Of a stretch of DNA of 64,000 nucleotides, positions 3,278-64,000 are shown in pieces. How positions within the stretch are numbered: the first letter of the stretch is position 1; each line of letters starts with the position of its first letter. The DNA is from Dicyema japonicum (taxonomy: Eukaryota; Dicyemida; Rhombozoa; Dicyemidae), in assembly GCA_011109175.1 (NCBI GenBank), contig RDEW01000023.1, positions 862,468 through 926,467 of the forward strand, read 5' to 3'. The position numbers and the translations under genes were made by a program. The notes below the pieces were generated by a model that was not told the DNA's origin, did not search any database, and saw only the letters and a list, made by a program, of their open reading frames with translations.

Positions 3278-3289
3278 ACTGCCTTTTAT

Positions 3290-4215: not shown

Positions 4216-4224
4216 TTCTGTTAA

Positions 4225-21718: not shown

Positions 21719-22140
21719 AATTTATTTATGTATTATTAACCCAAGAACACCAATAGTTAATAAAATTACTAAATTAATTAAGTGATCTCGACAGCCTCAA
21801 TCAGATTTCTCATCCTTTCCTTGTGGCTTCTGGGATCCAAAACAGCTTCTCAGTGATTATTTGGGGAATAAAAATTGGAGAGGGGTGATGTATGTCCTTC
21901 TCATAAGACACGTCCTAACTGTGTACTGTTGGGAGTTGCAGTTCATGCTCAGGGAGCAAATCCCTTTACATTTCGTCGGATAAGGTCTTCAAGTGATAAG
22001 GGGAATAGTTTTTCTAGTTTCCCAAGATTACTAATAGTAGTGGTTGTCAAGTACTCAATGTCGCTGATTTTTTGATTGTTCGTTTAGGAAGATTAATTCC
22101 CATGACGCAATTGCATAGATGACAGATGGCTCAAATAATT
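21719..22140 (-). pseudogene. LINE-E 3' end, invaded by LINE-B
   Basis: Nucleotide relative of 3290-3720: same order of CTTGGGTTAATAATA, the GATCTCG...CTCAATCAGA block, CTTCTCATAAGACACGTC, GGTCTTCAAGTGAT and CATGACG...CATAG.TGACAGATGGCTCAA. At 22105-22150 it passes directly into the 3' end of LINE-B, while the copy at 3.7 kb continues uninterrupted. LINE-B therefore landed in this LINE-E. The same junction recurs in every unit of the tandem array. Confidence 0.65.
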
Positions 22141-23467
22141 GTGCAATTTATTTATTTAACCCCAAGACCACCAGGAAAGATAAATCAAAACTGACTAATT
22201 AGGTGATCCCATCCTCCAGCAACATCCGAACTCTCTTCTGATTATCCAACCGCACTCCGGAAGCGTCTTCTCTTCCTTCTGCAAAGGGATTCAATCGGCG
22301 TACACTTTTTTATTACCGACCGATATCCCTCTGCATGGGCCACCTTTTCCATGAGTGAGTTTCCCAGTTCCTTGCAGAAACGTAGTAAACCCTGGCCATT
22401 TTTCAACGTTGCCTCATCAGAAACGAGGTCGCCAATGAGGATGTCCGTGTGGTGCATAATTCTCCGCCTGAGGGATTTCAAACGGTCCATTGTCGAAGGG
22501 GAAATCACAAACTTCGAAGCGGAATTGGCATATTCAATGGTCGGTACAATTACTTGTTGATAGACTCTGCTGATGCAAGCAGCCGGAAAAAATGGGCTCT
22601 TCTTTATCATCGCATTCAGAATGTTCCATTTTCGAAGACCCTTGGCAAGCAGCTTTTCCACGTGACTCGAGAACGTCAACAGAGAGTCGAATGATACACC
22701 AAGGATCTTCTGGGTCCTGCGTAAAAGGGATGGGAGTGTTTCCGATGGATATCTCAAGCCCACCTTTGAACCTGTCCGTAGTGAATAATGTGAACTGAGA
22801 CTTGGATGCTGATACACATAACATATTTGCAGATAGCCAGTCACTGATTCGGTTTAGGTGTGTCTGAAAAGTTGCTACAGCCATGGAAGGAGATTTATTT
22901 CTTGCAGCGATAATTAGGTCGTCCGCATAGGATAAAAACATAGTGTCCTGGTCATTAATAGTAGGTAGGTCATGTAGAAATAAATTGAAAAGGAGAGTAG
23001 ATAAAGGGGAGCCTTGCAGGACCCCACTGGGGAGTAGTCTTGATTTTGATGTGGTTTTGTCAATACGGACCCTTCCGCGTCGTGCAGTTAAGAAGTTTTC
23101 CAGCCATAGCTTGATGTTTGGGTGTAAGTTCGAGTTAAAAATCTTTTGAGTTAGAAGTTTCCTCGGAACATATCAAAGGCCTTCTGTATGTCGATAAATA
23201 CTAAGACCGTCCGTAAGTGTGTTCTCATGTTGAAGCCGTAAGTAATAAACTGGAAGATAGAACCCAAATGAGTCGTTGTAGAACGGTCTGCCCTGAAACC
23301 ATGTTGAAACTCTGGTAGATGTAGAACAGGAGAGATGCGCATTAACACAAGCTTTTCCGGTACTTTTGATAAAACACAAGTTATTGAGATGGGGCGGTAA
23401 GAAGAGGGAACGTCTTTTTGGTTTTCTGGGCTTTAGGATTGGCGTAATGAAAGAGTTTTTCCATATA
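22141..23467 (-). pseudogene. LINE-B, RT core to 3' end (part 1)
   Basis: On the minus strand, in several frames: KNSFITPILKP, FQHGFRADRSTTTHLGSIFQ, FITYGFNMRTHLRTVLVFID (motif A), SGVLQGSPLSTLLFNLFLHD (motif B), MFLSYADDLIIAARNKSPSM (motif C, YADD intact), LSANMLCVSASKSQFTLFTT, and a C-terminus ending NQKRVRMLLEDGIT-stop. The 3' UTR has CCTGGTGGTCTTGGGG and TTAAATAAATAAA. It belongs to the Jockey/CR1-like group together with LINE-C and LINE-E. Frameshifts and a Tigger insertion at 23468 make it inactive. It is the closest complete relative of the LINE-B pieces in the 46-64 kb array. Confidence 0.7.
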
Positions 23468-27511: not shown

Positions 27512-27522
27512 GAAGATGTCGA

Positions 27523-28419: not shown

Positions 28420-28551
28420 TAATCAAATTAACAAAAATATAAAGTTCAAATTAAATTATTATTTAAAATAGTAATTTAAATTTGCTGACTTCGTGATGGG
28501 TAATAAAATCAGAACGATAAATCTGAACTCACAACTCTCCTCAAAAACGCA

Positions 28552-32765: not shown

Positions 32766-32769
32766 CCCT

Positions 32770-33105
32770 TCATTGACACCATCCTATCATAGTGATGATT
32801 ATTGCTTTTGATTCTTTTGATCATTCCTAGCATTAAATGAGTATGCTGATTTGCTACTAAACAATATAAAAATCCTTTAGTTTAATGCATATTCTGCCTT
32901 GGTAAAAGTAGCTATTTCACTAATAACATAAATCCTACCAAAAGATCAAAATTTTAAAACCGACAATATTAATGAGTATTTGATTTTATTATAGAGTTTA
33001 GTTTTGTTAATTTATTAACACTTACAATTTTTTGATTTTATAGGTAAAAAAATGTTATTTTTGCAAATTTAAAAAAAATTAATTAAAATATTAGTTTTCT
33101 AACCA
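32770..33105. other. no recognised gene; short repeat near 32828-32890
   Basis: AT-rich. The stretch with CCTAGCATTAAATGAGTATG is a diverged copy of the one at 19048-19120. Confidence 0.3.
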
Positions 33106-41880: not shown

Positions 41881-41950
41881 TTCTATGATTAATAAAATTC
41901 TAAATTTCTGGTATTTTTTAAATAAGAAAAAATATCATTTTATTAACTTA

Positions 41951-42178
41951 CAGGGTTTTCCTATTTATTTAATAACTTTGTCATAAAATTTAATAACTTT
42001 GTCAAAAAATTTAATAACTTTGTCATAAAATTTAATAACTTTGTCATAAAGTTTAATAACTTTGTCATAAAATTTAATAACTTCGTCAAAATATTTAATA
42101 ACTTTGTCAAAATGCTAAATAATTTTGTCAAAATGTTTAATAACTTTGTCAAAATGTTTAATAACTTTGTCAAGGGTC
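41951..42178 (+). repeat. left inverted repeat array (about ten 21-bp units)
   Basis: TTAATAACTTTGTCA recurs every 21 bp with six variable bases (for example TAAAAT, AAAAAT, AAATGT). The inner copies carry the AAATGT/AAATAT type, the outer ones the TAAAAT/AAAAAT type. The ORF seen across it on the minus strand is a by-product of the period being a multiple of three. Confidence 0.85.
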
Positions 42179-42227
42179 AAATTAAAAAAAACCAATTTTA
42201 TAATTAATTGAAAAAAACAACTGTAAA

Positions 42228-43275: not shown

Positions 43276-43436
43276 TTAATTCATTTTGCACAAAAATTTG
43301 TATTTATAGGAACTTAATAATCCAATATATATAAATAATGATCTAATAAATATAAATAATGATCTAATAAAAATAAATAATTATCTCAATAAATATAAAT
43401 AGTAATCCCAAAAATATAAATAATAATCTTTACTGA

Positions 43437-43607
43437 GTTATTAAACATTTTGACAAAGTTATTAAACATTTTGACAAAGTTATTAAGTATTTTGACGAAT
43501 TATTAACATTTTGACAAAGTTATTAAATTTTATGACAAAGTTATTAAATTTTTTGACAAAGTTATTAAATTTTATGACAAAGTTATTAAATAAATAGGAA
43601 AACCCTG
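43437..43607 (-). repeat. right inverted repeat array (about eight 21-bp units)
   Basis: Mirror image of the left array, with the same CAGGGTTTTCC terminus and the same order of outer variants. The inner copies are more worn (one unit is one base short). Confidence 0.85.
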
Positions 43608-43609
43608 TA

Positions 43610-44955
43610 TCTTTCAATGCTTGTTGTTAACGCCAAGTTTTGTATGCTTCTATTTTTCCTCGAGTCGTTGTTCGCATCGCTATATTATAGTATATTCTGT
43701 TTTCTCGGTGTTAATTTTTAGGAATGATTTTTCAAATGTTTTTTGCCAATTTGTCGATAATACCTTCTAATTGGTAGTCTGCTGCCGTGAGATCTATGGC
43801 ATCTGCGAAGATGACTTCCGTTATATGTCTGGGGATATTATTCATGACTTCTAGTAGGATTTCCTTCAGATTTGTGATGAATAATACCGAGGATAGGGCG
43901 TCTCCTTGAGGGGTGCCTTTCTTTGTTCCTAATACACTGGAATTCTGACTTCCGAACTGGATAAATAGTTGAGTGGAGGAGAGTAGACAACGAATTATTC
44001 TGATGCAATCTTCTTGAATAGTGGTGTTAATAATTGTATCATCTTGACTACACTGATTGAGTCAAATGCCTTAGATAGGTCTATTCCCATTATGGGGTAC
44101 TCCCTTTATATTTTGGCATGAAGCACACATCCATTTGTGGCTCCAAACAGCATCGAAGTTTATCTTCTAGAGACAAACCCACTTTGGCTAGCTTCGATAA
44201 ATCAACGTAGTAGGGCTTTTATTCTGTCTAGAGCGATTCGATAGAATTTTGCTCAGTCATGTTTGATTGGTCTTAAGCTGTTTAGCTATCCTTTTTCCAT
44301 CCCCGTTTTATGTAAGGGGATTAATTTTCCGATTTCGATGTAAATTCTGGAGTGTTCCTCAAATGTTTTGTTCGGATGTGAGTAATGAGTTTTGAAACTC
44401 TTCAGGAGCGTAATTTATGAGTTCTGCATTAACAAATCTAGGCCTGGGGCTGTTAAGTTGTTTAGTCTAGTCACAGTTTTTTAACTTCTGTTAAGGTTAT
44501 CTCTGGTGATAGCTTTCTGGGGAGTCCATCAACGGATAAAGCGTTTTTTCGTTATCAAAATTGAAATATTTTTCTAAGTGATCAACTATTTCTCGCATAA
44601 TTTTATTCTTTGGATTTTGAACTCAGTTGCTTTCAATTGGTTGTGCGTGTTCATGTATTTGATACGTAGATCCTTTTGTAAATTGTAGATGTGATCTATA
44701 TGTGGGTCGTGTATACCTTTGATTGTTTTGGGAATTTTACCAATCGTGTGATTAGCCACTGATTTTATTTTGTAACGAGTTTATTCCATAAACTTCCATC
44801 AGGTAAATTGAGATTGATCGATTATATGGTATGCGATATTTTAGCTGAATAGTTATTTCTGTAGATAGAATTGTTTCTTAAGAGTTTGACAGCGTATCTA
44901 AGTTCTCTGTGTCTGTTTTTGACTCTGTTAATCCAAAATCTTTCTTGAGAAGTTT
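43610..44955 (-). pseudogene. LINE-D, inverted copy at the edge of the tandem array
   Basis: On the minus strand: INLNLPDGSLWNKLV, ITLTEVKKTVTRLNNLTAPG, IYIEIGKLIPLHKTGMEKG, NSLRPIKHD, FIEASQSGF, MGIDLSKAFDSIS (motif A), KGTPQGDALSSVLFITNLKE-like motif B in shifted frames, and ITEVIFADAIDLTAADYQLE, where motif C should read FADD. The second catalytic aspartate is replaced by alanine. It extends beyond the RT region kept in the array units. It lies in opposite orientation to the LINE-D of the array, making a large inverted repeat around 44.9-45.2 kb. Confidence 0.65.
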
Positions 44956-45185
44956 GATTACCTTTCTTGAGAAGTTTGATTACCTTTCCTTATCATTACG
45001 GATAAACCAACAGGGAAGATCTATACCGAATTAGAGATGTTGAGGCAAACCCTAGAAAGTCACAATAGTTTAACTCAATAAACAATCTAACATTTTTTTG
45101 GAACGGAACTCGAAGGTAGAATACCTCTGTTTTTTGATACACCCTCTGGATTTTGAACACTTCAAAAATTTTATTAAAAAATTAA
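44956..45185. other. unassigned sequence between inverted LINE-D copies
   Basis: Begins with a perfect tandem duplication of about 22 bp (CTTTCTTGAGAAGTTTGATT..., near 44943-44988). A short + frame reads TDKPTGKIYTELEMLRQTLE, not recognised. This is the spacer of the inverted repeat. Confidence 0.4.
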
Positions 45186-45990
45186 TAAGAACCATATACA
45201 AACAACCAGGAACCTACAGACACCATAGCTAATCACTTCGAAAAATATTTCAATTTTAATAAGAAGAATCACTTTATGCGTTTGATGGACTCGACAGAAA
45301 AGATATCACCAATGATAACCTTAACAGAATTTTAAAAACTGTGACTAGACTAAACAACTTAACAGTCCTAGGCCCTAGATTTGTTAATGCAGAGCTCATA
45401 AAATACGCTCATGAAAATTTTCTAAACTCATTACTCACATTCCGAACAAAACATTTGAGGAATACTCCAGAATAAAATTGGAATCAGAAAATTAATCCCT
45501 TTACATAAAACTGAAAAGGAAATAAAATAGCTAAACAGCTTAAGACCAATCAAACATGACTGAGCAAATTCTATCGTAATCGCTGTAGACAAAATAAAAG
45601 CCCCACTACGTTGATTTATCGAAGCTAGATTTATTTCTTGCAGAGATAATTAGGTCGTCTGCATAGGATAAAAACATAGTGTCCTGATCATTGGTAGTAG
45701 CTAGGTCATGTAGAAAAAGGTTGAAAATAAGAGAAGATAAAGGGGAGCCTTGCAGAACCCCATTGTAAAGTAGTCTTAATTTTGAAGAGTTTTGTCAATT
45801 CGGACCCTTCCGCGTCGTCAGTTAAGAAGTTTTCCAGCCATAGCTTGATGTTTGGGTGTAAGTTCGAGTTAAAAATCTTTTGAGTTAGGAGTTTCCTCGG
45901 AACATATTCAAAGGCCTTCTGTATGTCGATGAATATCTAAGGCCGTCCGTAAGTGTGTTCTCATGTTGAAGCCGTAAGTAATAAACTGCA
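45186..45990. repeat. tandem array, partial unit 0 (internally deleted)
   Basis: The + strand carries LINE-D from the TIANHFEKYFNF.KKNHFMRL segment to the 'CTACGTTGATTTATCGAAGC' region, then jumps at about 45625 straight to the LINE-B RT core on the minus strand (SARN.., YADDL). In the full units about 900 nt lie between these points. At 45991 it enters the spacer of unit 1 at the same base as all other units. Confidence 0.7.
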
Positions 45991-45999
45991 GTGTGCTTT

Positions 46000-47740
46000 T
46001 TAATAATAACTTTACTAACGTTGTTTTGCGGTGTGTTTATTATTAATAACAACGATCTACAAGAGCTATACTATTAAAATTTTGAAGAGGAGATTAAGAC
46101 AGTTCGCACATCTATATAAACATAAAAGACGTCAATTCCTTACCATTCTCTAGCTTTTGATTACTCTGGAAATGTGTTTATACAGATCTCTATTACATTG
46201 AGAATTGAGCCATCAAAATTTCTAACATGCTATACTCGTTCGACTTGACAAGGGTCAATAAGACTGAGAGACAAAGGCTTAGGTATCTTCCGAATTTGGC
46301 TAATCGATTCTAACTTCATGCTTTCGTCTTTCTTTAGACAGTCTCTCAGTTTTTTGTTTAAGGATAGCTTAATTGCAGTTCTAATCTTTTTTCCGAGGTA
46401 TAAGCACATATCACAAAAGAACCAGTCCTCGCATCAATAAAGTACTCCAAGAAACATGAGACTTGTTTTACAAATATTACTGAGTCTTACAAAAAATCGT
46501 AATACCATCTTAATTTGAAGAATACAAGTTATGGCTGTTGCATGACAAATCAGTATGGACGAGTTTATAATTATTATCTGATTCTTGTGGCTTAGTGATC
46601 GTTAAGTAGGATGACCCAAATCAAATATTTTATCACTATGGGTAGAATCTTGGTGTATACCTAGTATTACTAGTTCTATCTGTTTATGCAAGAAGGTCAA
46701 CAGATAAAAGATAGTCTCAATTTCTTCATCTTCGCAACAATTATAAAATAGAATCGAGAGACTTAAATCAAAATTATTTCATTTATAAATATATACGATT
46801 CAAATAAAAAGATTGTATTTCAAATTAACTCGAAAAATATTGATACTTATAAAATGAAGTTTAAATACTATAATAAAATGTATTTATATAAAACGTGATA
46901 TTGTATTTTGATTTATCGTTTTGAACATGTAGTTTTGTTGTTCAAAAATATTAAAATTAAAGTCATATTTTTTTGTTTGTGTACTTACATTTTTGAAAAT
47001 TTTTAATTTATTCTTGGCAAAATGATTATTCATATTATTTCTTGGAAGATCGTCTGTATTATATCCCCTAAAGTATTATAAAAACTTACTTATTATTATT
47101 TATTAAAAATTCATAATGTGACATAATTTCACTACTCTCGAAACTATAATAATAAAAATAAGTTTATACTAATAACGTGCTGATGAATACTTTGTAAATC
47201 GGATATTATCAATTTTTTCAAAATTATAAATTAAAAATTTGATTCTGTTTTTAGTTTTATCAATAAAATCGTTTTTTAAAAAATTCTATTATATTAAGTA
47301 ATCAAAAACTTTGAATATTATTTCATATGAAGTTATTCTGATAAATGTATTTACATTATTGGTTATCTCATTATCTCTATAAAAATTTAAATTTTTTTGA
47401 CAAACCTTGTCGAATCGATAAAATTTGCAGATATTATTGTGAATGAATCAGTAATATAATAATTTCTATTGCTGGATTTAAAGATATCTAAATCTTTCTA
47501 TCAATGTTTATAGTAGTGTAATACATAATAAATATGAACATTTATTGGATCTGACATTACATTGTTGAGTTTATTGCATGTTAATATACGTTGAATTATA
47601 CAAGCTTCCATAACCAACTATATAAATAAAAAACTATAAATAATTTAATTTAATATAAATTATCAATTATTAGTTTATATTTTTAAATTAAACATATTTG
47701 AACAATTATGCTTCCTTAAAAAAGTTATCACTTCTCCGCG
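46000..47740. repeat. array spacer of unit 1, with a semi-open minus-strand frame
   Basis: Very AT-rich from 46750 on. In 46160-46765 the minus strand keeps one frame with only four stops: NCCEDEEIETIFYLLTFLHK, then HATAITCILQIKMVLRFFVR, DWFFCDMCLYLGKKIRTAIK, LSLNKKLRDCLKKDESMKLE and SISQIRKIPKPLSLSLIDPC. An 18-nt GT-AG gap would remove one of the stops in frame. I do not recognise a family. The part from 46860 to 46995 relates to 39.0-39.1 kb. Confidence 0.4.
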
Positions 47741-47744
47741 ATTA

Positions 47745-49671
47745 TTTTGGTTGAGGTTGGTGACGCATCTCAAATTGCACTAATGTCTCTTTCACTCTTT
47801 CGAAACTCTCTCTTCACGCTAGCATCCTTCAACGTTCGAAGAGTAAAGTCGTCGGTCAAAAGAAGTTCACTCTGCCAGGATTTGAAACAATACAAAATTA
47901 CTAAGAGACCAAAGTCCAAGAAGGATTCAACGAACAAAATGCTGACCATGACCTTATCATGTTTCCTTCCAACTGTCATCACTAAGGAAAGGGATTTGCG
48001 GTAGAAATCAAACTCCGGGAATATATATCAAGAATATGGAAAGTGAATTACAGAATTTGCGTAATTCAATTAGAAACTGGATCTAACTCTACAATTACAA
48101 TTATAAATGTATATGCTCATACATTTCCAAAACTCTCTAAAACCCAACGGAACTGAAATATTTTAACAGTTCAATATCCACAACCCTTATGGTAATATCC
48201 ACGAGGTATGTACTTTACATAAGTGCGAGATTGGAACGCGAAAGTCGGAAAATGTGCGGAGAACTGAGCTTCATGGGTACCCATGGGTGAGGTCAGAAAA
48301 ACATGTCTGAAGCAACTATGGCCAACTTTGTGATTAATAAACAATTATTCATTTGCAACACAGCATTCCAGCACGCTGCAAGGCATATCAAGACCTGGAC
48401 TGATGAACGCCGAGACTTAAATGGACATTTAATCAAAATATATAACCAATTTGACTACATTCTGTTTCGACAATCACAGAAAACCCTATTCTCAGATTCC
48501 AGAACATATGGAAGGAACGCTAACATAGAGTGACTATAAACTATTAGTAATCACACTTCTCTTAAAGAAAAGATTTTGGATTAACAGAGTCAAAAACAGA
48601 CACAGAGAAGTTAGATACGCATTCGAATTCTAAAGAAACATTCTTATCTGCGTAAATAGCTACGCAGATAATATATCACAAACTATAGAATCGTTCAATC
48701 TCAATTTACCTGCTGGAAGTTTATGGAATAAACTCGTTGAAAAATAAAGAAAAAATCCCAGAATATCCACGAAACATTGCTACAGAACTTTGCAAATGAA
48801 GTAGGATAGTACTAACACGTATATGCATCTGTAAAGATGCTATCGCGAAAAAAGTATTCTGCAAATCTAACAGTTCATGATGAACTAGGAAGAACCATTT
48901 ACAACAACCAGGAAACCTACATACACCATAGCTAATCACTTAGAAAAATATTTCAATTTTTATAAGAAGAATCACTTTATGCGTTTGATGGACTCCCCAG
49001 AAAGCTATCACCAATTAAAACTTAACAAATTTAAAAACTGTGACTAGACTAAACAACTCAACAGCCCCAGAGCCTAGATATGTTAATGCAGAGCTCATAA
49101 AATACGCTCATGAAGATTTTCTAAACTCATTACTTACATTCCGAACAAAACATTTGAGGAATACTCCAGAATAAAATTGGAATCAGAAAATTAATCCCTT
49201 TACATAACTAAAAAGGAAATAAAATAGCTAAACAGCTAAGACCAATCAAACATGACTGAGCAAAATTCTATCGTAATCGCTGTAGACAGAATAAAAGCCC
49301 CACTACGTTGATTTATCGAAGCTAGCCAAAGTGGGTTTTCTTTGGAAGATCAACTTCCGATGCCGTTTGGAGCCACAAATGGATCTGTGCTTCATGCCAA
49401 AAATATAAAGATGAGTACCATATAATGGGAATCGACCTATCTAAGGCATTAGAGTCAATCAGTATATCAAGATAATACGAATATTAACACCACTATCAAG
49501 GAAGATTGCATCAGAATAATTCGTTATCTATTCTCCTCCACTCAACTATTTTTCCAGCTCGGAAATCAGAATTCCAGAGTATTAAGAACAAACAAAGGCA
49601 CCCCTCAAAGAGACGGCAAATCCCCGTTATTATTCATCACAAATCTGGAAGGAAATCCTACAATTGCATAG
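47745..49671 (+). pseudogene. LINE-D in unit 1: APE endonuclease and partial RT
   Basis: Endonuclease in shifting frames: ASFNVRRVKSSVKR, QEGFNEQNADHDLIMF, GKGFAVEIKLREYISRI, SNSTITIINVYAHTFPK, DWNAKVGKC (active-site D/N; the preceding G is lost in this unit), MANFVINKQLFICNTAFQHA, NQFDYILFRQSQKT. The final SDH is SDY in this unit but SDH in units 2-4. RT part: KKYSANLTVHDELGRTIYNN, FIEASQSGF, EDCIRIIRYLFSSTQLFFQL and KGTPQ, ending before motif C. The endonuclease is of the type seen in RTE/CFDP2-like elements. Dead. Confidence 0.65.
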
Positions 49672-49701
49672 CTGACAGATGGCTCAATTAATTGTTTGTG
49701 C

Positions 49702-50589
49702 AATTTATTTATTTAACCCCAAGACCACCAGGATAGATAGGTCAAAACTGACTAATTAGGTGATCCCAGCTACCAGTAACATCCGAACTCTCTTCATTTG
49801 GTCTTCTGATGATCCAACCGCATTCCAGATGCGTCTTCTCTTCCTTCTGCAAAGGAATTCTATCGGCGTGCACTTTTTTATTACCGACCGAAATCCCTCT
49901 GCATGGGCCACCTTTTCCTTGATTGGGTTTCCCAGTTCCTTTTAGAAACGTAGGAAATCCTTGCCATTTTTCAACGTTTCTTCATCAGAAACGATTGACT
50001 CGAGAACGTTAAAGAGAGTCGAAAATTACACCAATGATCTTCTGAGTCCTCGTAAAAGGGATGGGAGTGTTTCCGATGGATATCTTGACTCCACCTTTAA
50101 ATCTTCTGTCCGTAGTGAATAATGTGAACTGAGACTTGGATGCTGATACACATAACATATTTGAAGATGGCCAGTGACAACTCTTGTTAGGTGTGTCTGA
50201 ACAGTTGCTACAGCCATGGTTGGAGATTTATTTCTTGCAGAGATAATTAGGTCGTCTGCATAGGATAAAAACATAGTGTCCTGATCATTGGTAGTAGCTA
50301 GGTCATGTAGAAAAAGGTTAAAAATAAGAGAAGATAAATCGGAGCCTTGCAGAACCCCATTGTAAAGTAGTCTTAATTTTGAAGAGCTTTTGTCAATTCG
50401 GACCCTTCCGCGTCGTTCAGTTAAGAAGTTTTCCAGCCATAGCTTGATGTTTGGGTGTAAGTTCGAGTTAAAAATCTTTTGAGTTAGGAGTTTCCTCGGA
50501 ACATATTCAAAGGCCTTCTGTATGTCGATGAATAGTAAGGCCGTCCGTAAGTGTGTTCTCATGTTGAAGCCGTAAGTAATAAACTGCAG
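49702..50589 (-). pseudogene. LINE-B in unit 1: RT core and 3' end
   Basis: A 178-codon frame (50026-50562) runs MRTHLRTALLFIDIQKAFEY (motif A), LLYNGVLQGSDLSSLIFNLF (motif B), MFLSYADDLIISARNKSPTM (motif C) and TVQTHLTRVVTGHLQICYVY. Downstream come the C-terminus and the LINE-B 3' end at about 49702-49760. It starts abruptly at LQFITYGFNM, the same truncation point in every unit. Compared with 22.1-23.4 kb, the region after motif C has lost a block and changed frame. Confidence 0.7.
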
Positions 50590-52319
50590 GTGTGCTTATT
50601 AATAATAACTTTACTAACGTTGTTTTGGTGTGCTTATTATTAATAACAACGATCTACAAGAGCTATACTATTAAAAATTTGAAGAGGAGATCAAGACAGT
50701 TCGCACATCTATATAAACATAAAAGACGTCAATTCCTTACCATTCTCTAGCTTTTGATTACTCTGGAAATGTGTTTATACAGATCTCTATTACATTGAGA
50801 ATTGAGCCATCAAAATTTCTAACATGCTATACTCGTTCGACTTGACAAGGGTCAATAAGACTGAGAGACAAAGGCTTAGGTATCTTCCGAATTTGGCTAA
50901 TCGATTCTAACTTCATGCTTTCGTCTTTCTTTAGACAGTCTCTCAGTTTTTTGTTTAAGGATAGCTTAATTGCAGTTCTAATCTTTTTTCCGAGGTATAA
51001 GCACATATCACAAAAGAACCAGTCCTCGCATCAATAAAGTACTCCAAGAAACATGAGACTTGTTTTACAAATATTACTGAGTCTTACAAAAAATCGTAAT
51101 ACCATCTTAATTTGAAGAATACAAGTTATGGCTGTTGCATGACAAATCAGTATGGACGAGTTTATAATTATTATCTGATTCTTGTGGCTTAGTGATCGTT
51201 AAGTAGGATGACCCAAATCAAATATTTTATCACTATGTGTAGAATCTTGGTGTATATCTAGTATTACTAGTTCTATCTGTTTATGTAAGAAGGTCAACAG
51301 ATAAAAGATAGTCTCAATTTCTTCATCTTCGCAACAATTATATAGTAGAGTCGAGAGACTTAAATCAAAATTATTTCATTTATAAATATATACGATTCAA
51401 ATAAAAAGATTATATTTCAAATTAACTCGAAAAATATTGATATTTAAAAATGAAGTTTAAATACTATAATAAAATGTATTTATATAAAACGTGATATTGT
51501 ATTTTGATTTATCGTTTTGAACATGTAGTTTTGTTGTTCAAAAATATTAAAATATTAAAGTCATATTTTTTTGTTTGTGTACTTACATTTTTGAAAATTT
51601 TTAATTTATTCTTGGCAAAATGATTATTCATATTATTTCTTGGAAGATCGTCTGTATTATATCCCCTAAAGTATTATAAAAACTTACTTATTATTATTTA
51701 TTACAAATTCATAATGTGACATAATTTCACTGCTCTCGAAACTATAATAATAAAAATAAGTTTATACTAATAACGTGCTGATGAATACTTTGTAAATCGG
51801 ATATTTTCAATTTTTTCAAAATTATAAATTAAAAATTTGATTCTGTTTTTAGTTTTATCAAAAAAATCGTTTTTAAAAAAATTCTATTATATTAAGTAAT
51901 CAAAAACGTTGAATATTATTTCATATGAAGTTATTCGGATAAATGTATTTACATTATTGGTTATCTCATTATCTCTTTAAAAATTTAAATTTTTTTTGAC
52001 AAACCTTGTCGAATCGATAAAATTTGCAGATATTATTGTGAATGAATCAGTAATATAATAATTTCTATTGCTGGATTTAAGATATCTAAATCTTTCTATC
52101 AATGTTTATAGTAGTGTAATACATAATAAATATGAACATTTATTGGATCTGACATTACATTGTAGAGTTTATTGCATGTTAATATACGTCGAATTATACA
52201 AGCTTCCATAACCAACTATTTAAATAAAAAACTATAAATAATTTAATTTAATATAAATTATCAATTATTAGTTTATATTTTTAAATTCTTAAAAAAAGTT
52301 ATCACTTCTCCACGATATT

Positions 52320-54210
52320 TTTGGTTGAGGTTGATGACGCATCTCAAATTGCACTCATGTCTTTTTCACTCTTTCGAAACTCTCTGTTGACGCTAGCATC
52401 CTTCAAAGTTTGAGGAGTAAAGTCGTCGGTCAAAAAAAGACTATTCTGCCAGGATATGTTACGGTACAATATTACTAAGAGACGAAACTCCAAGAAGCAC
52501 TTAACGAACAAAATGCTGACCATGACCTTATCATTCTTCCTTCGGAATGTCATCAATACGAAATGGGATTTGCGGTGGATACCAGACTCCGGGAATATAT
52601 AAAAAGAATATTGAAAGTGAATGACAGAATTTGCGTAATTGAATTAGAAACTGGATCTAACTCTACAATTACAATTATAAATGTATATGCTCATACATTT
52701 CCAAAACTCTCTAAAACCCAACGGAACTGAAATATTTTAACAGTTCAATATCCACAACCCTTATGGTAATATCCACGAGGTATGTACTTTACATAAGTGG
52801 AGATTGGAACGCGAAAGTCGGAAAATGTGCGGAGAACTGAGCTTCATGGGTACCCATGGGTGAGGTCAGAAAAACATGTCTGAAGCAACTATGGCCAACT
52901 TTGTGATTAATAAACAATTATTCATTTGCAACACAGCATTCCAGCACGCTGCAAGGCTATCAAACCTGGACTGATGAACGCCGAGACTTAAATGGACATT
53001 TAATCAAAATATATAACCAATTGACTACATTCTGTGTGACAATCACAGAAACCTATTTTTAGATTCCAGAACATATGGATGGAACGCTAACATCGAGTGA
53101 TCATAAACTATTGGTAATCAAATTTCTCCTAAGAGAAATTTGGATTAACAGAGTCAAAACAGACACAGAGAACTTAGATACGCATTCGAATTCTAAAGAA
53201 ACATTCTTATCTACGTAAATAGCTATTCAGATAATATATCACAAACTATAGAATCGTTCAATCTCAATTTACTGCTGGAAGTTTAGGAATAAACTCGTTG
53301 AAAAATCAAGAAAATCCCAGAATATCACGAAACATAGCTACAGAACCTTGCAAATGAAGTAGGAATAGTACTAATACGTATATGCATCTGTAAAGATGCT
53401 ATCGCGAAGAAGTATTCTGCAAATCTAACAGTTCATGATGAACTAGGAAGAACATTTACAACAACCAGGAACCTACAGACACATAGCTAATCACTTAGAA
53501 AAATATTTCAATTTTTCTAAGAAGAATCACTTTATGCGTTTGATGGACTCCCCAGAAAGCTATCACAATTAAACCTTAACAGAATTTTAAAAACTGTGAC
53601 TAGACTAAACAACTCAACAGCCCAGGCCTAGATATGTTAATGCAGAGCTCATAAAATACGCTCATGAAGATTTTCTAAACTCATTACTTCATTCCAACAA
53701 AACATTTGAGGAATACTCCAGAATAAAATTGGAATCAGAAAATTAATCCTTTACATAAAACTGAAAAGGAAATAAAATAGCTAAACAGCTTTAGACCAAT
53801 CAAACATGACTGAGCAAAATTCTATCGTAATCGCTGTAGACAGAATAAAGCCCACTACGTTGATTTATCGAAGCTAGCCAAAGTGGGTTTGTATTTGGAA
53901 GATCAACTTCCGATGCCGTTGAGCCAAATGGATCTGTTCTTCATGCCAAAAATATAAAGATGAGTACATATAATGGGAATCGACTATCTAAGGCATTTGA
54001 GTCAATCAGTATATCAAGATAATACGAATATTACACCACTATCAAGGAAGATTGCATCAGAATAATTCGTTATCTATTCTCCTCCACTCAACTATTTTTC
54101 CAGCTCGGAAATCAGAATTCCAGAGTAATTAAGAACAAACAAAGGCACCCTCAAAGAGACGCCATATCCCCGTTATTATTCATCACAAATCTGAGGAAAT
54201 CCTACAATTG
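52320..54210 (+). pseudogene. LINE-D in unit 2
   Basis: Same endonuclease and RT pieces as unit 1. GDWNAKVGKC is intact near 52800 and the SDHKLLV block is intact near 53095. Frames after 52960 are scrambled by single-base losses. Confidence 0.6.
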
Positions 54211-54244
54211 CATAGCTGACAGATGGCTCAATTAATTGTTTGTG

Positions 54245-55117
54245 CAATTTATTTATTTAACCCCAAGACCACCAGGAAGATAGGTCAAAACTGACTAATT
54301 AGGTGATCCCAGCTTCCAGTAACATCCGAACTCTCTTCATTTGGTCTTCTGATGATCCAACCGCATTCCGATGCGTTTCTCTTCCTTCTGCAAAGGAATT
54401 CTATCGTGCACTTTTTTATTACCGACCGAAATCCTCTGCATGGCCACCTTTTCCTTGATTGGGTTTCCCAGTTCCTTTAGAAACGTAGAAATCCTTGCCA
54501 TTTTCAACGTTTCTTCATCAGAAACGATGACTCGAGAACGTTAAAGAGAGTCGAAAATTACACCAATGATCTTCTGGGTCCTCGTAAAAGGGATGGGTGT
54601 TTCCGATGGATATCTTGACTCCACCTTTAAATCTTCTGTCCGTAGTGAATAATGTGAACTGAGACTTGGATGCTGATACACATAACATATTTGAAGATGG
54701 CCAGTAACAACTCTTGTTAGGTGTGTCTGAACAGTTGCTACAGCCATGGTTGGAGATTTATTTCTTGCAGAGATAATTAAATCGTCCGCATAGGATAAAA
54801 ACATAGTGTCCTGATCATTGGTAGTAAGTAGGTCATGTAGAAATAGGTTGAAAAGGAGAGGAGATAAATCGGAGCCTTGCAGAACCCCATTGTAAAGTAG
54901 TCTTAATTTGAAGAGCTTTTGTCAATTCGGACCCTTCCGCGTCGTTCAGTTAAGAAGTTTTTCAGCCATAGCTTGATGTTTGGGTGTAAGTTCGAGTTAA
55001 AAATCTTTTGAGTTAGGAGTTTTCTCGGAACATATTCAAAGGCCTTCTGTATGTCGATGAATAGTAAGGCCGTCCGTAAGTGTGTTCTCATGTTGAAGCC
55101 GTAAGTAATAAACTGCA
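54245..55117 (-). pseudogene. LINE-B in unit 2
   Basis: RT frame split in two (54541-54804 and 54903-55091). YADDL is intact, and motif A (FIDIQKAFEY) is present. The end nearest the RT core truncates at the same base as in unit 1. Confidence 0.65.
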
Positions 55118-56854
55118 GTGTGCTTATTAATAATAACTTTACTAACGTTGTTTTGGTGTGCTTATTATTAATAACAACGATCTACAAGAGCTATACTATT
55201 AAAAATTTGAAGAGGAGATCAAGACAGTTCGCACATCTATATAAACATAAAAGACGTCAATTCCTTACCATTCTCTAGCTTTTGATTACTCTGGAAATGT
55301 GTTTATACAGATCTCTATTACATTGAGAATTGAGCCATCAAAATTTCTAACATGCTATACTTGTTCGACTTGACAAGGGTTAATAAGACTGAGAGACAAA
55401 GGCTTAGGTATCTTCCGAATTTGGCTAATCGATTCTAATTTCATGCTTTCGTCTTTCTTTAGACAGTCTCTCAGTTTTTGTTTAAGGATAGCTTAATTGC
55501 AGTTCTAATCTTTTTCCGAGTATAAGCAAATATCACAAAAGAACCAGTCCTCGCATCAATAAAGTACTCCAAGAAACATGAGACTTGTTTTACAAATATT
55601 ACTGAGTCTTACAAAAAATCGTAATACCATCTTAATTTGAAGAATACAAGTTATGGCTGTTGCATGACAAATCAGTATGGACGAGTTTATAATTATTATC
55701 TGATTCTTGTGGCTTAGTGATCGTTAAGTAGGATGACCCAAATCAAATATTTTATCACTATGGTAGAATCTTGGTGTATACTAGTATTACTATTCTATCT
55801 GTTATGTAAGAAGGTCAACAGATAAAAGATAGTCTCAATTTCTTCATCTTCGCAACAATTATAAAGTAGAGTCGAGAGACTTAAATCAAAATTATTTCAT
55901 TTATAAATATATACGATTCAAATAAAAAGATTGTATTTCAAATTAACTCGAAAAAATTGATACTTAAAAAATGAAGTTTAAATACTATAATAAAATGTAT
56001 TTATATAAAACGTGATATTGTATTTTGATTTATCGTTTTGAACATGTAGTTTTGTTGTTCAAAAATATTAAACATTAAAGTCATATTTTTTAGTTTGTGT
56101 ACTTACATTTTTGAAAATTTTAATTTATTCTTGGGAAAATGACTATTCCTATAATTTCTTGGAAGATCGTCTGTATTATATCCCCTAAAGTATTATAAAA
56201 ACTTGCTTATTATTATTTATTACAAATTCATAATGTGACATAATTTCACTACATTCTAAACTAAAATAAAAAAATAGGTTTATACTAATTACTTGGTAAT
56301 GAATACTCTGTAATTTGGATATTTTCAATTTTTTCAAAATTATAAATTAATAATTTTATTCTGTTTTTAGTTTTATCAATAAAATCGTTTTTTTTTAATT
56401 CTATAATATTAAGTAATTAAAAACGTCGAATATTATTTCGTATGAAGTTATTCGGATAAATGTATTTATACCTTTAGTTATCTCATTATCTCTAAAAATT
56501 TTAAATTTTTTGACAAACCTTGCTGAATCGCTAAAATTTGCAGATATTATTGTTAATGAATTAGTAATAAAATAATTTCTATTGCTGGATTTACAGATAT
56601 CTAAATCTTTCTATCAATGTTTATAGTAGTGTAATACATAATAAATATGAACATTTATTGGATCTGACATTAAATTGTTGAGTTTATTGCATGTTAATAT
56701 ACGTTGAATTATACAAGCTTCCATAACCAACTATTTAAATAAAAAACTATAAATAATTTAATTTATATAAATTATCAATTATTAGTTTATATTTTTAAAT
56801 TAAAAATATTAGAACAATTATACTTCCTTAAAAAAAGTTATCACTTCTCCACGA

Positions 56855-58771
56855 TATTTTTGGTTGAGGTTGATGACGCATCTCAAATTGCACTCATGTC
56901 TTTTTCACTCTTTCGAAACTCTCTGTTGACGCTAGCATCCTTCAACGTTCGAGGAGTAAAGTCGTCGGTCAAAAAAAGATTATTCTGCCAGGATCTGAAA
57001 CGGTACAATATTACTAAGAGACCAAACTCCAAGAAGCACTTAACGAACAAAATGCTGACCATGACCTTATCATTCTTCCTTCGGAATGTCATCAATACGA
57101 AATGGGATTTGCGGTGGATACCAGACTCCGGGAATATATAAAAGAATATTGAAAGTGAATGACAGAATTTGCGTAATTGAATTAGAAACTGGATCTAACT
57201 CTACAATTACAATTATAAATGTATATGCTCATACATTTCAAAAACTCTCTAAAACCCAACGGAACTGAAATATTTTAACAGTTCAATATCCACAACCCTT
57301 ATGGTAATATCCACGAGGTATGTACTTTACATAAGTGGAGATTGGAACGCGAAAGTCGGAAAATGTGCGGAGAACTGAGCTTCATGGATACCCATGGGTG
57401 AGGTCAGAAAAACATGTCTGAAGCAACTATGGCCAACTTTGTGATTAATAAACAATTATTCATTTGCAACACAGCATTTCAGCACGCTGCAAGGCATATC
57501 AAGACCTGGACTGATGAACGCCGAGACTTAAATGGACATTTAATCAAAATATATAACCAATTGACTACATTCTGTGTCGACAATCACAGAAAACCCTATT
57601 TTTAGATTCCAGAACATATGGATGGAACGCTAACATCGAGTGATCATAAACTATTGGTAATCAAATTTCTCCTAAAGAAGAAGATTTTGGATTAACAGAG
57701 TCAAAAACAGACACAGAGAACTTAGATACGCATTCGAATTCTAAAGAAACATTCTTATCTACGTAAATAGCTACTCAGATAATATATCACAAACTATAGA
57801 ATCGTTCAATCTCAATTTACCTGCTGGAAGTTTATGGAATAAACTCGTTGAAAAATAAAGAAAAAATCCCAGAATATCCACGAAACATAGCTACAGAACC
57901 TTGTAAATGAAGTAGGATAGTACTAACACGTATATGCATCTGTAAAGATGCTATCGCGAAAGAAGTATTCTGCAAATCTTACAGTTCATGATGAACTAGG
58001 AAGAATCATTTACAACAACCAGGAACCTACAGACACCATAGCTAATAACTTAGAAAAATATTTCAATTTTTATAAGAAGAATCACTTTATGCGTTTGATG
58101 GACTCCCCAGAAAGCTATCACCAATTAAAACTTAACAGAATTTTAAAAACTGTGACTAGACTAAAAAAACAGCCCAGAGATATGTTAATGCAGAGCTCAT
58201 AAAATACGCTCATGAAGATTTTCTAAACTCATTACTTACATTCCGAACAAAACATTTGAGGAATACTCCAGAATAAAATTGGAATCAGAAAATTAATCCC
58301 TTTACATAAAACTGAAAAAGAAATAAAATAGCTAAACAGCTTAAGACCAATCAAACATGACTGAGCAAAATTCTATCGTAATCGCTGTAGACAGAATAAA
58401 AGCCCTACTACGTTGATTTATCGAAGCTAACCAAAGTGGGTTTGTCTTTGGAAGATCAACTTCCGATGCCGTTTGGAGCCACAAATGGATCTGTTCTTCC
58501 TGCCAAAAATATAAAGATGAGTACCATATAATGGGAATCGACCTATCTAAGGCATTTGACTCAATCAGTATATCAAGATAATACAAATATTAACACCACT
58601 ATCAAGGAAGATTGCATCAGAATAATTCGTTATCTACTCTCCTCCACTCAACTATTTATCCAGCTCGGAAATCAGAATTCAAGAGTATTCGGAACAAAGA
58701 AGGGCACCCCTCAAGGAAAAGCCATATCTCCGGTATTATTCATCACATATCTGAAGGAAATCCTACTATTG
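56855..58771 (+). pseudogene. LINE-D in unit 3
   Basis: The best-preserved array copy for the RT start: MGIDLSKAFDSIS (motif A) near 58530-58570, IRIIRYLLSSTQLFIQLGNQ, then VFGTKKGTPQGKAISPVLFI (motif B, with K where D is usual). Endonuclease SDH intact near 57643. It stops before motif C. Confidence 0.65.
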
Positions 58772-58805
58772 CATAGCTGACAGATGGCTCAATTAATTGT
58801 TTGTG

Positions 58806-59693
58806 CAATTTATTTATTTAACCCCAAGACCACCAGGAAAGATAGGTCAAAACTGACTAATCATGTGATCCCAGCCTCCAGTAACATCCGAACTCTTTTC
58901 ATTTGGTCTTCTGATGATCCAACCGCATTCCGGATGCGTCTTCTCTTCCTTCTGCAAAGGAATTATATCGGCGTGCACTTTTTTATTACCGACCGAAATC
59001 CCTCTGCATGGGCCACCTTTTCCTTGATTGGGTTTCCCAGTTCCTTTTAGAAACGTAGGAAATCCTTGCCATTTTTCAACGTTTCTTCATCAGAAACGAG
59101 TGACTCGAGAACGTTAAAGAGAGTCGAAAATTACACCAATGATCTTCTGGCTCCTCGTAAAAGAGATGGGAGTGTTTCCGATGGATATCTTGATCCCACC
59201 TTAAAATCTTATGTCCGTAGTGAATAATGTGAACTGAGACTTGGATGCTGATACACATAACATATTTGAAGATGGCCAGTCACAACTCTGGTTAGGTGTG
59301 TCTGAACAGTTGCTACAGCCATGGTCGGAGATTTATTTCTTGCAGAGATAATTAGGTCGTCTGCATAGAATAAAAACATAGTGTCCTGATCATTGGTAGT
59401 AGCTAGGTCATGTAGAAAAAGGTTGAAAATAAGAGAAGATAAAGGGGAGCCTTGCAGAACCCCATTGTAAAGTAGTCTTAATTTTGAAAAAGTTTTGTCA
59501 ATTCGGACCCTTCCGCGTCGTCCAGTTAAGAAGTTTTCCAGCCATAGCTTGATGTTTGGGTGTAAGTTCGAGTTAAAAATCTTTTGAGTTAGGAGTTTCC
59601 TCGGAACATATTCAAAGGCCTTCTGTATGTCGATGAATACTAAGGCCGTCCGTAAGTGTGTTCTCATGTTGAAGCCGTAAGTAATAAACTGCG
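58806..59693 (-). pseudogene. LINE-B in unit 3
   Basis: 152-codon frame (59209-59667): FIDIQKAFEY, NGVLQGSPLSSLIFNLFLHD, then FLFYADDLIISARNKSP. The catalytic YADD is preserved. Confidence 0.65.
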
Positions 59694-61449
59694 GTGTGCT
59701 TATTAATAATAACTTTACTAACGTTGTTTTCCGGTCTGCTTATTATTAATAACAACGATCTACAAGAACTATACTATTAAAAATTTGAAGAGGAGATCAA
59801 GACAGTTCGCACATCTATATAAACATAAAAGACGTCAATTCCTTAACATTCTCTAGCTTTTGATTACTCTGGAAATGTGTTTATACAGATCTCTATTACA
59901 TTGAGAATTGAGCCATCAAAATTTCTAACATGCTATACTCGTTCGACTTGACAAGGGTCAATAAGACTGAGAGACAAAGGCTTAGGTATCTTCCGAATTT
60001 GGCTAATCGATTCTAACTTCATGCTTTCGTCTTTCTTTAGACAGTCTCTCAGTTTTTTGTTTAAGGATAGCTTAATTGCAGTTCTAATCTTTTTTCCGAG
60101 GTATAAGCACATATCACAAAAGAACCAGTCCTCGCATCAATAAAGTACTCCAAGAAACATGAGACTTGTTTTACAAATATTACTGAGTCTTACAAAAAAT
60201 CGTAATACCATCTTAATTTGAAGAATACAAGTTATGGCTGTTGCATGACAAATCAGTATGGACGAGTTTATAATTATTATCTGATTCTTGTGGCTTAGTG
60301 ATCGTTAAGTAGGATGACCCAAATCAAATATTTTATCACTATGGGTAGAATCTTGGTGTATACCTAGTATTACTAGTTCTATCTGTTTATGTAAGAAGGT
60401 CAACAGATAAAAGATAGTCTCAATTTCTTCATCTTCGCAACAATTATAAAGTAGAGTCGAGAGACTTAAATCAAAATTATTTCATTTATAAATATATACG
60501 ATTCAAATAAAAAGATTGTATTTCAAATTAACTCGAAAAATATTGATACTTATAAAATGAAGTTTAAATACTATAATAAAATGTATTTATATAAAACGTG
60601 ATATTGTATTTTGATTTATCGTTTTGAACATGTAGTTTTGTTGTTCAAAAATATTAAAACATTAAAGTCATATTTTTTTGTTTGTGTACTTACATTTTTA
60701 AAAATTTTTAATTTATTCTTGGCAAAATGATTATTCATATTATTTCTTGGAAGATCGTCTGTATTATATTCCCTAAAGTATTATAAAAACTTACTTATTA
60801 TTATTTATTACAAATTCATAATGTGACATAATTTCACTACTCTCGAAACTATAATAATAAAAATAAGTTTATACTAATAACGTGCTGATGAATACTTTGT
60901 AAATCGGATATTTTCAATTTTTTCAAAATTATAAATTAAAAATTTGATTCTGTTTTTAGTTTTATCAAAAAAATCGTTTTTAAAAAAATTCTATTATATT
61001 AAGTAATCAAAAACGTTGAATATTATTTCATATGAAGTTATTCGGATAAATGTATTTACATTATTGGTTATCTCATTATCTCTTTAAAAATTTAAATTTT
61101 TTTTGACAAACCTTGTCGAATCGATAAAATTTGCAGATATTATTGTGAATGAATCAGTAATATAATAATTTCTATTGCTGGATTTAAAGATATCTAAATC
61201 TTTCTATCAATGTTTATAGTAGTGTAATACATAATAAATATGAACATTTATTGGATCTGACATTACATTGTTGAGTTTATTGCATGTTAATATACGTTGA
61301 ATTATACAAGCTTCCATAACCAACTATTTAAATAAAAAACTATAAATAATTTAATTTAATATAAATTATCAATTATTAGTTTATATTTTTAAATTAAACA
61401 TATTAGAACAATTATACTTCCTTAAAAAAAGTTATCACTTCTCCACGAT

Positions 61450-63371
61450 ATTTTTGGTTGAGGTTGGTGACGCATCTCAAATTGCACTCATGTCTTTTTC
61501 ACTCTTTCGAAACTCTCTGTTGACGCTAGCATCCTTCAACGTTCGAGGAGTAAAGTCGTCGGTCAAAAAAAGACTATTCTGCCAGGATATGTTACGGTAC
61601 AATATTACTAAGAGACGAAACTCCAAGAAGCACTTAACGAACAAAATGCTGACCATGACCTTATCATTCTTCCTTCGGAATGTCATCAATACGAAATGGG
61701 ATTTGCGGTGGATACCAGACTCCGGGAATATATAAAAAGAATATTGAAAGTGAATGACAGAATTTGCGTAATTGAATTAGAAACTGGATCTAACTCTACA
61801 ATTACAATTATAAATGTATATGCTCATACATTTCCAAAACTCTCTAAAACCCAACGGAACTGAAATATTTTAACAGTTCAATATCCACAACCCTTATGGT
61901 AATATCCACGAGGTATGTACTTTACATAAGTGGAGATTGGAACGCGAAAGTCGGAAAATGTGCGGAGAACTGAGCTTCATGGGTACCCATGGGTGAGGTC
62001 AGAAAAACATGTCTGAAGCAACTATGGCCAACTTTGTGATTAATAAACAATTATTCATTTGCAACACAGCATTCCAGCACGCTGCAAGGCATATCAAGAA
62101 CTGGAACGCGCGAGACTTAAATGGACATTTAATCAAAATATATAACCAATTTGACTACATTCTGTGTCGACAATCACAGAAAACCCTATTTTTAGATTCC
62201 AGAACATATGGATGGAACGCTAACATCGAGTGATCATAAACTATTGGTAATCAAATTTCTCTAAAGAGAAGATTTTGGATTAACAGAGTCAAAAACAGAC
62301 ACAGAGAACTTAGATACGCATTCGAATTCTAAAGAAACATTCTTATCTACGTAAATAGCTATTCAGATAATATATCACAAACTATAGAATCGTTCAATCT
62401 CAATTTACCTGCTGGAAGTTTATGGAATAAACTCGTTGAAAAATAAAGAAAAAATCCCAGAATATCCACGAAACATTGCTACAGAACTTTGCAAATGAAG
62501 TAGGATAGTACTAACACGTATATGCATCTGTAAAGATGCTATCGCGAAAGAAGTATTCTGCAAATCTTACAGTTCATGATGAACTAGGAAGAATCATATA
62601 CAACACAACCAGGAACCTACAGACACCATAGCTAATCACTTAGAAAAATATTTCAATTTTAATAAGAAGAATCACTTTATGCGTTTGATGGAGTCGACAG
62701 AAAGCTATCACCAGAAAAAACCTTAACAGAAGTTTAAAAACTGTGACTAGACTAAACAACTTAACAGTCCTAGGTTTAATTTAAGTTAATGCAGAACTAA
62801 TAAATTACGCTCCTGAAACGTTTCTAAACTGATTAGTTACATTCCTAACAAAACATTTGAGGAATACAGCAGAATAACATCGAAATCGGAAAAATAATCC
62901 CCTTACATAAAACGGGGATGGAAAAAGGATAGCTAAACAGCTTAAGACCAATAAAACATGACTGAGCAAAATTCTATCGTAATCGCTCTGGACAGAATAA
63001 AAGCCCCACTACGTTGAATTATCGGAGCAATCCAAAGTAAATTTTCTCCGGAAGCTAAACTTCCGATGCTGTGTGGAGCCACAAATGGATGTGTGATTCA
63101 TGCCAAAAATATAAAGAGGAGTACCCCATAATGGGAATATACCTATCTAAGGCATTAGACTCAATCAGTATAGTCAAGATAATACGAATATTAACACCAC
63201 TATCAAGGAAGATTGCATCAGAATAATTCGTTATCTACTCTCCTCCACTCAACTATTTTTCCAGCTCGGAAATCAGAATTCCAGAGTATTCGGAACAAAG
63301 AAGGGCACCCCTCAAGGAGAAGCCCTATCCCCGGTATTATTCATCACAAATCTGAGGAAATCCTACAATTG
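61450..63371 (+). pseudogene. LINE-D in unit 4 (mosaic)
   Basis: The endonuclease part matches units 1-3 (GDWNAKVGKC and SDHKLLV intact). The segment around 62690-63190 carries variants shared with the inverted copy (ATCGAAATCGG, AAAACGGGGATGG, GGATGTGTG, ACCCCATAATGGG, AGTATAGTCAAGAT), then returns to array type with KKGTPQGEALSPVLFI. Confidence 0.6.
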
Positions 63372-63405
63372 CATAGCTGACAGATGGCTCAATTAATTGT
63401 TTGTT

Positions 63406-64000
63406 CAATTTATTTATTTAACCCCAAGACCACCAGGAAAGATAGGTCAAAACTGACTAATTAGGTAATCCCAGCTTCCAGTAACATCCGAACTCTCTTC
63501 ATTTGGTCTTCTGATGATCCAACCGCATTCCGGATGCGTCTTCTCTTCCTTTTGCAAAGGAATTCTATCGGCGTGCACTTTTTTATTACCGACCGAAATC
63601 CCTCTACATGGGCCACCTTTTCCTTGATTGGGTTTCCCAGTTCCTTTTAGAAACGTAGGAAATCCTTGCCATTTTTCAACGTTTCTTCATCAGAAACGAG
63701 TGACTCGAGAACGTTAAAGAAAGTCGAAAATTACACCAATGATCTTCTGGGTCCTCGTAAAAGGGATGGGAGTGTTTCCGATGGATATCTTGACTCCACC
63801 TTTAAATCTTCTGTCCGTAGTGAATAATGTGAACTGAGACTTGGATGCTGATACACATAACATATTTGAAGATGGCCAGTGACAACTCTTGTTAGGTGTG
63901 TCTGAACAGTTGCTACAGCCATGGTTGGAGATTTATTTCTTGCAGAGATAATTAGGTCGTCTGCATAGGATAAAAACATAGTGTCCTGATCATTGGTAGT
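63406..64000 (-). pseudogene. LINE-B in unit 4 (cut by the window end)
   Basis: C-terminal part and 3' end, with SYADDLIISARNKSP at the right edge. Same breakpoints as other units on its 3' side. Confidence 0.65.

What the first reader, a model, noticed from the sequence alone, without database searches (positions are those of the whole stretch)
45186..64000. Tandem array of a ~4.6-kb composite unit built from convergent fragments of two LINEs
Four units start at 45991, 50590, 55118 and 59694 (periods 4599, 4528, 4576). Each joins the same spacer, the same LINE-D fragment (+) and the same LINE-B fragment (-) at identical breakpoints. LINE transposition cannot make this; block amplification (unequal exchange, rolling-circle or reinsertion of circles) can. 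If the host is a dicyemid, it may relate to the repetitive extrachromosomal circular DNA described during dicyemid development, or to a centromeric or heterochromatic satellite.
Basis: partly seen in the sequence, partly recalled or inferred. Interest (0 to 1): 0.85.

Follow-up and report, generated by a model that had tools for sequence, protein, structure and literature searches.

The report
Tandem array of LINE-transposon debris
A stretch of broken LINE transposons in an animal genome, probably that of a dicyemid parasite, has been copied head to tail at least four times in the assembly; it looks like a young, local satellite repeat growing out of transposon wreckage, a known kind of event, here unusually easy to trace.

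Summary
A ~4.6-kb unit repeats head to tail from 45991 to the window end: three complete units, a fourth cut by the window edge, and a deleted partial unit upstream. Among scored candidates both composite joints are found only in this array. The unit is more mosaic than described: two fragments of a probable further LINE in the "spacer", a segment shared with contig C126, LINE-D with its 5' end, and a LINE-B 3' fragment whose flank was otherwise seen beside LINE-B only at window 22108. Outside divergent patches the units differ by 1.3-2.6%; three of four units carry clustered divergent tracts, one matching C126 at 35 of 36 diagnostic sites. This fits block amplification with later sequence exchange, as in transposon-derived satellites. 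The host is probably a dicyemid. A link to dicyemid circular DNA is not supported (described circles are ~0.7 kb), nor is a genome-wide centromeric satellite (complete units at one locus). Copy number is unproven: one unit has excess small deletions that look like sequence error, the right end was unreadable, and no reads were available. A new member of a known kind.

The parts
45187..45990 (+). U0, partial unit: unit 2900-3335 joined to 4234-4599, with an internal deletion of about 0.9 kb at a ~2-bp overlap; left edge of the array
45991..50589 (+). U1, complete unit, 4599 bp
50590..55117 (+). U2, complete unit, 4528 bp; carries excess small private deletions (likely sequence error)
55118..59693 (+). 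U3, complete unit, 4576 bp
59694..64000 (+). U4, unit cut by the window end (unit 1-4305)
46050..46292 (+). in U1: fragment of a dispersed repeat, probably a degraded LINE (unit 60-302), present in the other units too
46443..46700 (+). in U1: second fragment of the same repeat family (unit 453-710)
   Evidence: weak endonuclease match in relative L040
46865..47744 (+). in U1: segment shared in part with contig C126, up to the LINE-D 5' end; lacks a ~2.4-kb LINE-like insert that C126 carries with a shared 7-bp flank
47745..49661 (+). in U1: LINE-D from its 5' end (about unit 1755), broken at unit 3671
49661..49703 (+). in U1: 43-bp flank of LINE-B shared with window 22108
49704..50589 (-). in U1: LINE-B 3' fragment (3' end near 49704), with a ~0.23-kb internal deletion
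22108..23252 (-). LINE-B copy with the same 3' flank; likely relative of the source of unit 3671-4599
43854..44961 (-). inverted LINE-D fragment beside the array; possible partner of part of a U4 tract

Best explanation
A nascent composite satellite (short macrosatellite-like array). Illegitimate joining first brought together pieces of LINE-rich DNA: fragments of a degraded LINE, a segment shared with C126 that already held LINE-D, and a LINE-B 3' end with flank from a locus like window 22108. That composite was then duplicated head to tail by a second illegitimate joint or template switch, expanded by unequal exchange, and its units have since exchanged sequence with each other and with dispersed relatives. 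Shown: the unit, its joints, their restriction to one locus among scored candidates, their relatives and the tract mosaicism. Inferred: the order of events, unequal exchange as the expansion step, and the direction of conversion. No function is indicated.
For: Four near-identical units. The B-spacer joint is spanned at 4 places, all in the array (including the partial-unit/U1 joint), while the other 36 of 40 scored matches (142 candidates) stop at the joint. The D-B joint is spanned at 4 places, all in the array; of the other 36 of 40 scored (311 candidates), one, window 22108, also has the 43-bp flank. Full-length spacer: 4 of 48 matches, all in the array (40 of 221 candidates scored). Two joints that can be read against relatives overlap by 1-2 bp, by eye. 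Units match both C126 and a downstream copy at 98-99% just before LINE-D (unit 1600-1700), so the array's LINE-D start lies in a duplicated segment. Private substitutions cluster in U1, U3 and U4 (0 of 2000 uniform shuffles reach the observed maximum). The U1 tract (columns 1690-2110) matches C126 at 35 of 36 sites, 97.8% identity against 86.9% for U2.
Against: Copy number rests on the assembly alone. U2 shows 34 private deletions to 13 substitutions in columns 2390-4100, the other units together 6 to 108 (Fisher p 3e-18), which looks like sequence error. Mis-polishing by reads from relatives could imitate conversion tracts. The U3 donor is unclear (17 of 30 covered sites match C126, 9 match the other units) and over the whole U4 tract the inverted copy fits no better than the other units do (25 of 56 match it, 29 match the other units). 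U2 shows no clustering (394 of 2000 shuffles reach its value). The left edge lies inside LINE-D, out of phase with the unit joint, which simple tandem duplication does not predict without a later deletion; there a dispersed repeat and LINE-D overlap by up to ~16 bp, more than at the other joints. Genome searches score only some candidates: one search did not list the array itself.
Confidence: 0.75

Rival explanations
1. Reinsertion of an extrachromosomal circle: the 4.6-kb unit was excised as a circle, copied by rolling circle and reintegrated as a concatemer opened inside LINE-D.
For: Same joints in every unit; the left edge lies inside LINE-D, out of phase with the unit joint; the likely host group makes circular DNA (PMC6543705).
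Against: The described circles over 500 bp have a median of about 0.7 kb and no nuclear protein domains were found in circles; one locus only; the partial unit already has one deletion, so a deletion can equally explain the left edge.
Confidence: 0.12
2. Assembly artefact in copy number: one or two true units were strung into four by the assembler, or variants from a mixed wild sample were placed in tandem.
For: Deletion excess in U2; long N runs in fetched sequence, compatible with gaps; if the genome is the published Dicyema japonicum one, it merges Illumina and PacBio assemblies and has 1.24% heterozygosity (PMC6736024), close to the 1.3-2.6% between units.
Against: Units carry different private substitutions (70, 24, 78 and 71 up to the end of U4) and different tracts; the tandem joint occurs four times, so at least a duplication or a circle must exist.
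Confidence: 0.1
3. A functional satellite (centromere or heterochromatin) of which this is one block.
For: Satellites can grow from transposon debris (PMC12628747, PMC3648361); the surrounding window holds several LINE pieces.
Against: Complete units found at one locus only, about four copies; no transcript, chromatin or cytological data. Blocks missing from the assembly are not excluded.
Confidence: 0.03

Closest known systems
Composite satellite monomers from 'transposon graveyards' (review and hypothesis, PMC12628747; passages read)
   Same: One monomer made of successive stretches of several different transposons, tandemised inside transposon-rich DNA.
   Different: Here the monomer is long (4.6 kb), its D and B pieces are long and recognisable, relatives of several pieces are located, and only about four units are seen; the review speaks of short stretches in satellite monomers.
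Maize CRM1TR and CRM4TR (PMC3648361; abstract and section list read)
   Same: Retroelement-derived tandem repeats; the authors propose successive intrastrand deletions for the start and gene conversion as the main cause of sequence variation.
   Different: Those derive from LTR and UTR parts of single centromeric LTR-retrotransposon subfamilies; this unit mixes several LINEs and its chromosomal position is unknown.
Circular DNA of dicyemids (PMC6543705, sections 5 and 6 and passages read; Noto 2003 not read)
   Same: Same likely host group; a circle would also give identical joints.
   Different: Circular contigs over 500 bp have a median of 702 bp and only mitochondrial protein domains were found; this unit is 4.6 kb of LINE-derived DNA within a 983-kb contig.

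Membership tests
Composite transposon-derived satellite | Head-to-tail tandem monomers | tested here: met
   three complete units, a cut fourth, a partial one
Composite transposon-derived satellite | Monomer with stretches of several different transposons | tested here: met
   LINE-D and LINE-B firm; the third, spacer LINE probable
Composite transposon-derived satellite | Long arrays or many loci, as in an established satellite | tested here: not met
   full spacers at 4 places, all in this array; hence 'nascent'. The assembly or the capped search may hide more.
Composite transposon-derived satellite | Heterochromatic or pericentromeric position | not testable with these tools
   no cytology or chromatin data
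Dicyemid developmental circular DNA | Size near 0.7 kb | tested here: not met
   unit 4528-4599 bp against a median of 702 bp for circles over 500 bp
Dicyemid developmental circular DNA | No nuclear protein domains | tested here: inconclusive
   relatives of the unit's LINEs carry RT domains, but the unit's own frames are mostly broken and were not themselves scanned
Dicyemid developmental circular DNA | Shared circle motif | not tested
   given as a figure in PMC6543705; figures are not held
Dicyemid developmental circular DNA | Exists as free circles | not testable with these tools
   needs reads or PCR
Product of LINE transposition | Each copy ends in its own 3' tail with its own target site | tested here: not met
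   all four units share the same LINE-B 3' flank, unlike dispersed LINE-B copies, whose flanks differ

The most novel reading that the evidence does not exclude
The array is the chromosomal source or the landing site of a large class of LINE-containing circular DNA made during dicyemid development and missed so far, because short-read circle calling favours small circles.
Probability: 0.04. Interest if true: 0.7.

Novelty: new member of a known kind. Interest (0 to 1): 0.35.

Why it matters
It shows an early stage of satellite birth from transposon debris: relatives of several monomer pieces can be named, a related locus without a seen tandem copy (C126) and an empty site give polarity, and divergent tracts are visible. 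A satellite of dicyemids was not found described in the library searched (4 papers hold 'dicyemid' and 'satellite', none with a title about dicyemid satellites; only the listing and abstract starts were seen; supplements of PMC6736024 were not read). It also warns that short tandem blocks in such assemblies need long-read proof before any link to circular DNA is drawn.

Tried and rejected
Non-coding RNA and tRNA: none in the window at the thresholds used, so no sign of an rRNA, 5S or tRNA array. Phage collection: only 9 records, all with a match of about 70 bp, taken as chance. Simple nested insertion of B into D: rejected, since next to the B 3' end lies a 43-bp flank shared with window 22108, not D. 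One donor for all divergent tracts: rejected; C126 fits U1 well and U3 weakly, and only a sub-tract of U4 chosen after looking (12 of 14 sites, columns 3190-3300) fits the inverted copy. Identification of the host by rRNA failed, the request never being answered.

The script gave empty output, probably because of invalid BLAST settings, and was repeated with others; the alignment was used only as a hint. In the counts of private sites, columns with a gap in any other unit and columns beyond the end of U4 were dropped (with a looser rule: 82, 36, 88 and 81 sites).

Full report
Observation. The window is part of a 983,314-bp contig of a 64.67-Mb assembly in 191 contigs. Self-alignment gives the array directly: 45627-59400 aligns with 50224-64000 at 95.3%. 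Three complete units of 4599, 4528 and 4576 bp, a fourth cut by the window end, and a partial unit upstream are present. The reported starts and periods are correct.

Anatomy of one unit (coordinates within U1). Unit 60-302 and 453-710 match dispersed copies of another repeat at 73-83% and also align with one such copy in translated frames. This repeat is probably a LINE: of three frames scanned from two relatives, one has an endonuclease match (PF14529, E 5e-4, below the curated cut-off), the other two no meaningful match. Parts of unit 875-1600 match contig C126 and a stretch downstream of the array. LINE-D starts at about unit 1755: in 5 of 6 dispersed loci whose start was printed the flanks change at about that point, by eye; it is broken at 3671. 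Unit 3671-3713 is a flank of LINE-B, also present beside LINE-B at window 22108. Unit 3714-4599 is the 3' part of LINE-B in reverse orientation, with a short internal deletion. Of four frames scanned from dispersed LINE-D copies two match RVT_1 (one above the curated cut-off); of three frames from LINE-B loci two match RVT_1 (one above cut-off) and one an endonuclease-reverse transcriptase domain (above cut-off). Convergent orientation of D and B is confirmed.

The joints are private among scored candidates. A 201-bp probe over the B-spacer joint gave 40 scored matches out of 142 candidates: 4 span it, all in the array (partial unit/U1, U1/U2, U2/U3, U3/U4), and 36 stop at it. A 221-bp probe over the D-B joint gave 40 of 311: 4 span it, all in the array (U1 to U4); one further match, window 22108, includes most of the 43-bp flank, and 35 start at the LINE-B end. 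Of 48 spacer matches, 4 are full length, all in the array; 2 are pieces of C126, 2 lie downstream on the same contig, and 40 fall in the two repeat fragments. These searches score only part of the candidates, and one search failed to list the array itself, so absence elsewhere is not proven. A probe over the left edge is spanned only at its own place, 1 of 40 scored matches out of 56 candidates; there a dispersed repeat of about 120 bp and LINE-D overlap by up to about 16 bp.

A related locus. C126 carries parts of unit 875-1610, then about 2.4 kb, then unit 1600-3671; no tandem copy is seen in the 8.3 kb read. The extra stretch has reverse frames, one of three scanned matching RVT_1 above cut-off, a TTA-repeat edge and a shared 7-bp flank, by eye, as expected of a LINE insertion; the array unit then keeps the empty site. 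The downstream copy shares part of this insertion. At unit 1600-1700 the units match both C126 and the downstream copy at 98-99%. The simplest reading is an older segmental duplication containing one LINE-D insertion, from which the array later arose.

Divergence and exchange. Outside four patches the units differ by 1.25-2.59%. Private substitutions are clustered in U1, U3 and U4 beyond any of 2000 uniform shuffles, not in U2 (394 of 2000 reach the observed value). In the main U1 tract 35 of 36 private sites match C126; in a second, short one 7 of 10 do. In U3, 17 of 30 covered sites match C126 and 9 match the other units. In U4, over the full tract, 25 of 56 match the inverted LINE-D beside the array and 29 match the other units; a sub-tract picked afterwards fits the inverted copy at 12 of 14. 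U1 is therefore a good case of exchange, or of retained ancestral sequence while the others were replaced; U3 and U4 are divergent tracts without a clear donor. Consensus errors from misplaced reads remain possible.

Assembly quality. In columns 2390-4100, U2 has 34 private deletions against 13 substitutions, the other three units 6 against 108 (Fisher p 3e-18). This looks like residual long-read error, not evolution. The sequence beyond the window could not be read in full (N), so the right edge was not seen. The tandem joint is nevertheless present four times with unit-specific variants, so at least a duplication or a circle is real if the assembly is right at any of them.

Host. A locus on C115 that reads by eye as alpha-tubulin (tubulin match) has a 28-bp GT...AG intron; beta-tubulin-like loci appear to have similarly short ones by eye (identity of L042 supported). 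The assembly is 64.67 Mb, and the window with the loci fetched by then has GC 0.37. Published values for Dicyema japonicum are an estimated size of 65 Mb, GC 36.7%, 48.9% repeats and multiple copies of a LINE-1 ORF2 protein (PMC6736024, passages), and introns of Dicyema sp. have a median of 27 bp (PMC6543705, section 5). A dicyemid is likely; the species is inferred, not shown.

Interpretation. Illegitimate joining, tandem duplication, unequal exchange and conversion within LINE debris can explain the features shown; the order of events is inferred. The array resembles the composite satellites proposed to rise from transposon graveyards (PMC12628747, passages) and the maize CRM tandem repeats, where gene conversion is given as the major cause of variation (PMC3648361, abstract). 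Dicyemid circles differ in size and content (PMC6543705, section 6). A reinserted circle is kept as a rival mainly because the left edge lies inside LINE-D. Function: none is indicated.

Noticed in passing
window 41949-43609: A DNA transposon with DDE_3 (above cut-off) and HTH_Tnp_Tc3_2 (below cut-off) matches whose inverted ends are built from iterated 21-bp repeats; many copies in the genome, several near full length at 88-95% (150 matches, end pieces included; 40 of 173 candidates scored).
   Followed up: partly
window 25698-28422: A long LINE with RT and endonuclease frames in reverse; ahead of the endonuclease match the frame has a GDIELNPGP stretch that resembles a 2A peptide (resemblance recalled, not searched).
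   Followed up: no
window 2239-2757: hAT transposase dimerisation domain.
   Followed up: no
window 30085-30348 and 31341-31605: Direct repeat at 97% near reverse LINE frames.
   Followed up: no
window 31338-32805; C126 stretch of L037; stretch downstream of the array: The C126 locus begins with a piece 94% identical to the reverse LINE at window 31338-32805, and the downstream copy shares this piece, so the duplicated segment is larger than the part seen in the array unit.
   Followed up: partly
L042, L043, L045 and other tubulin matches: 26 tubulin matches (exon pieces) in the genome, many fragmentary or with stops in frame (some stops may lie in short introns); L045 looks like a disrupted beta-tubulin copy.
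   Followed up: no
window 45082-45202: A dispersed repeat of about 120 bp abuts and slightly overlaps the left edge of the array.
   Followed up: no
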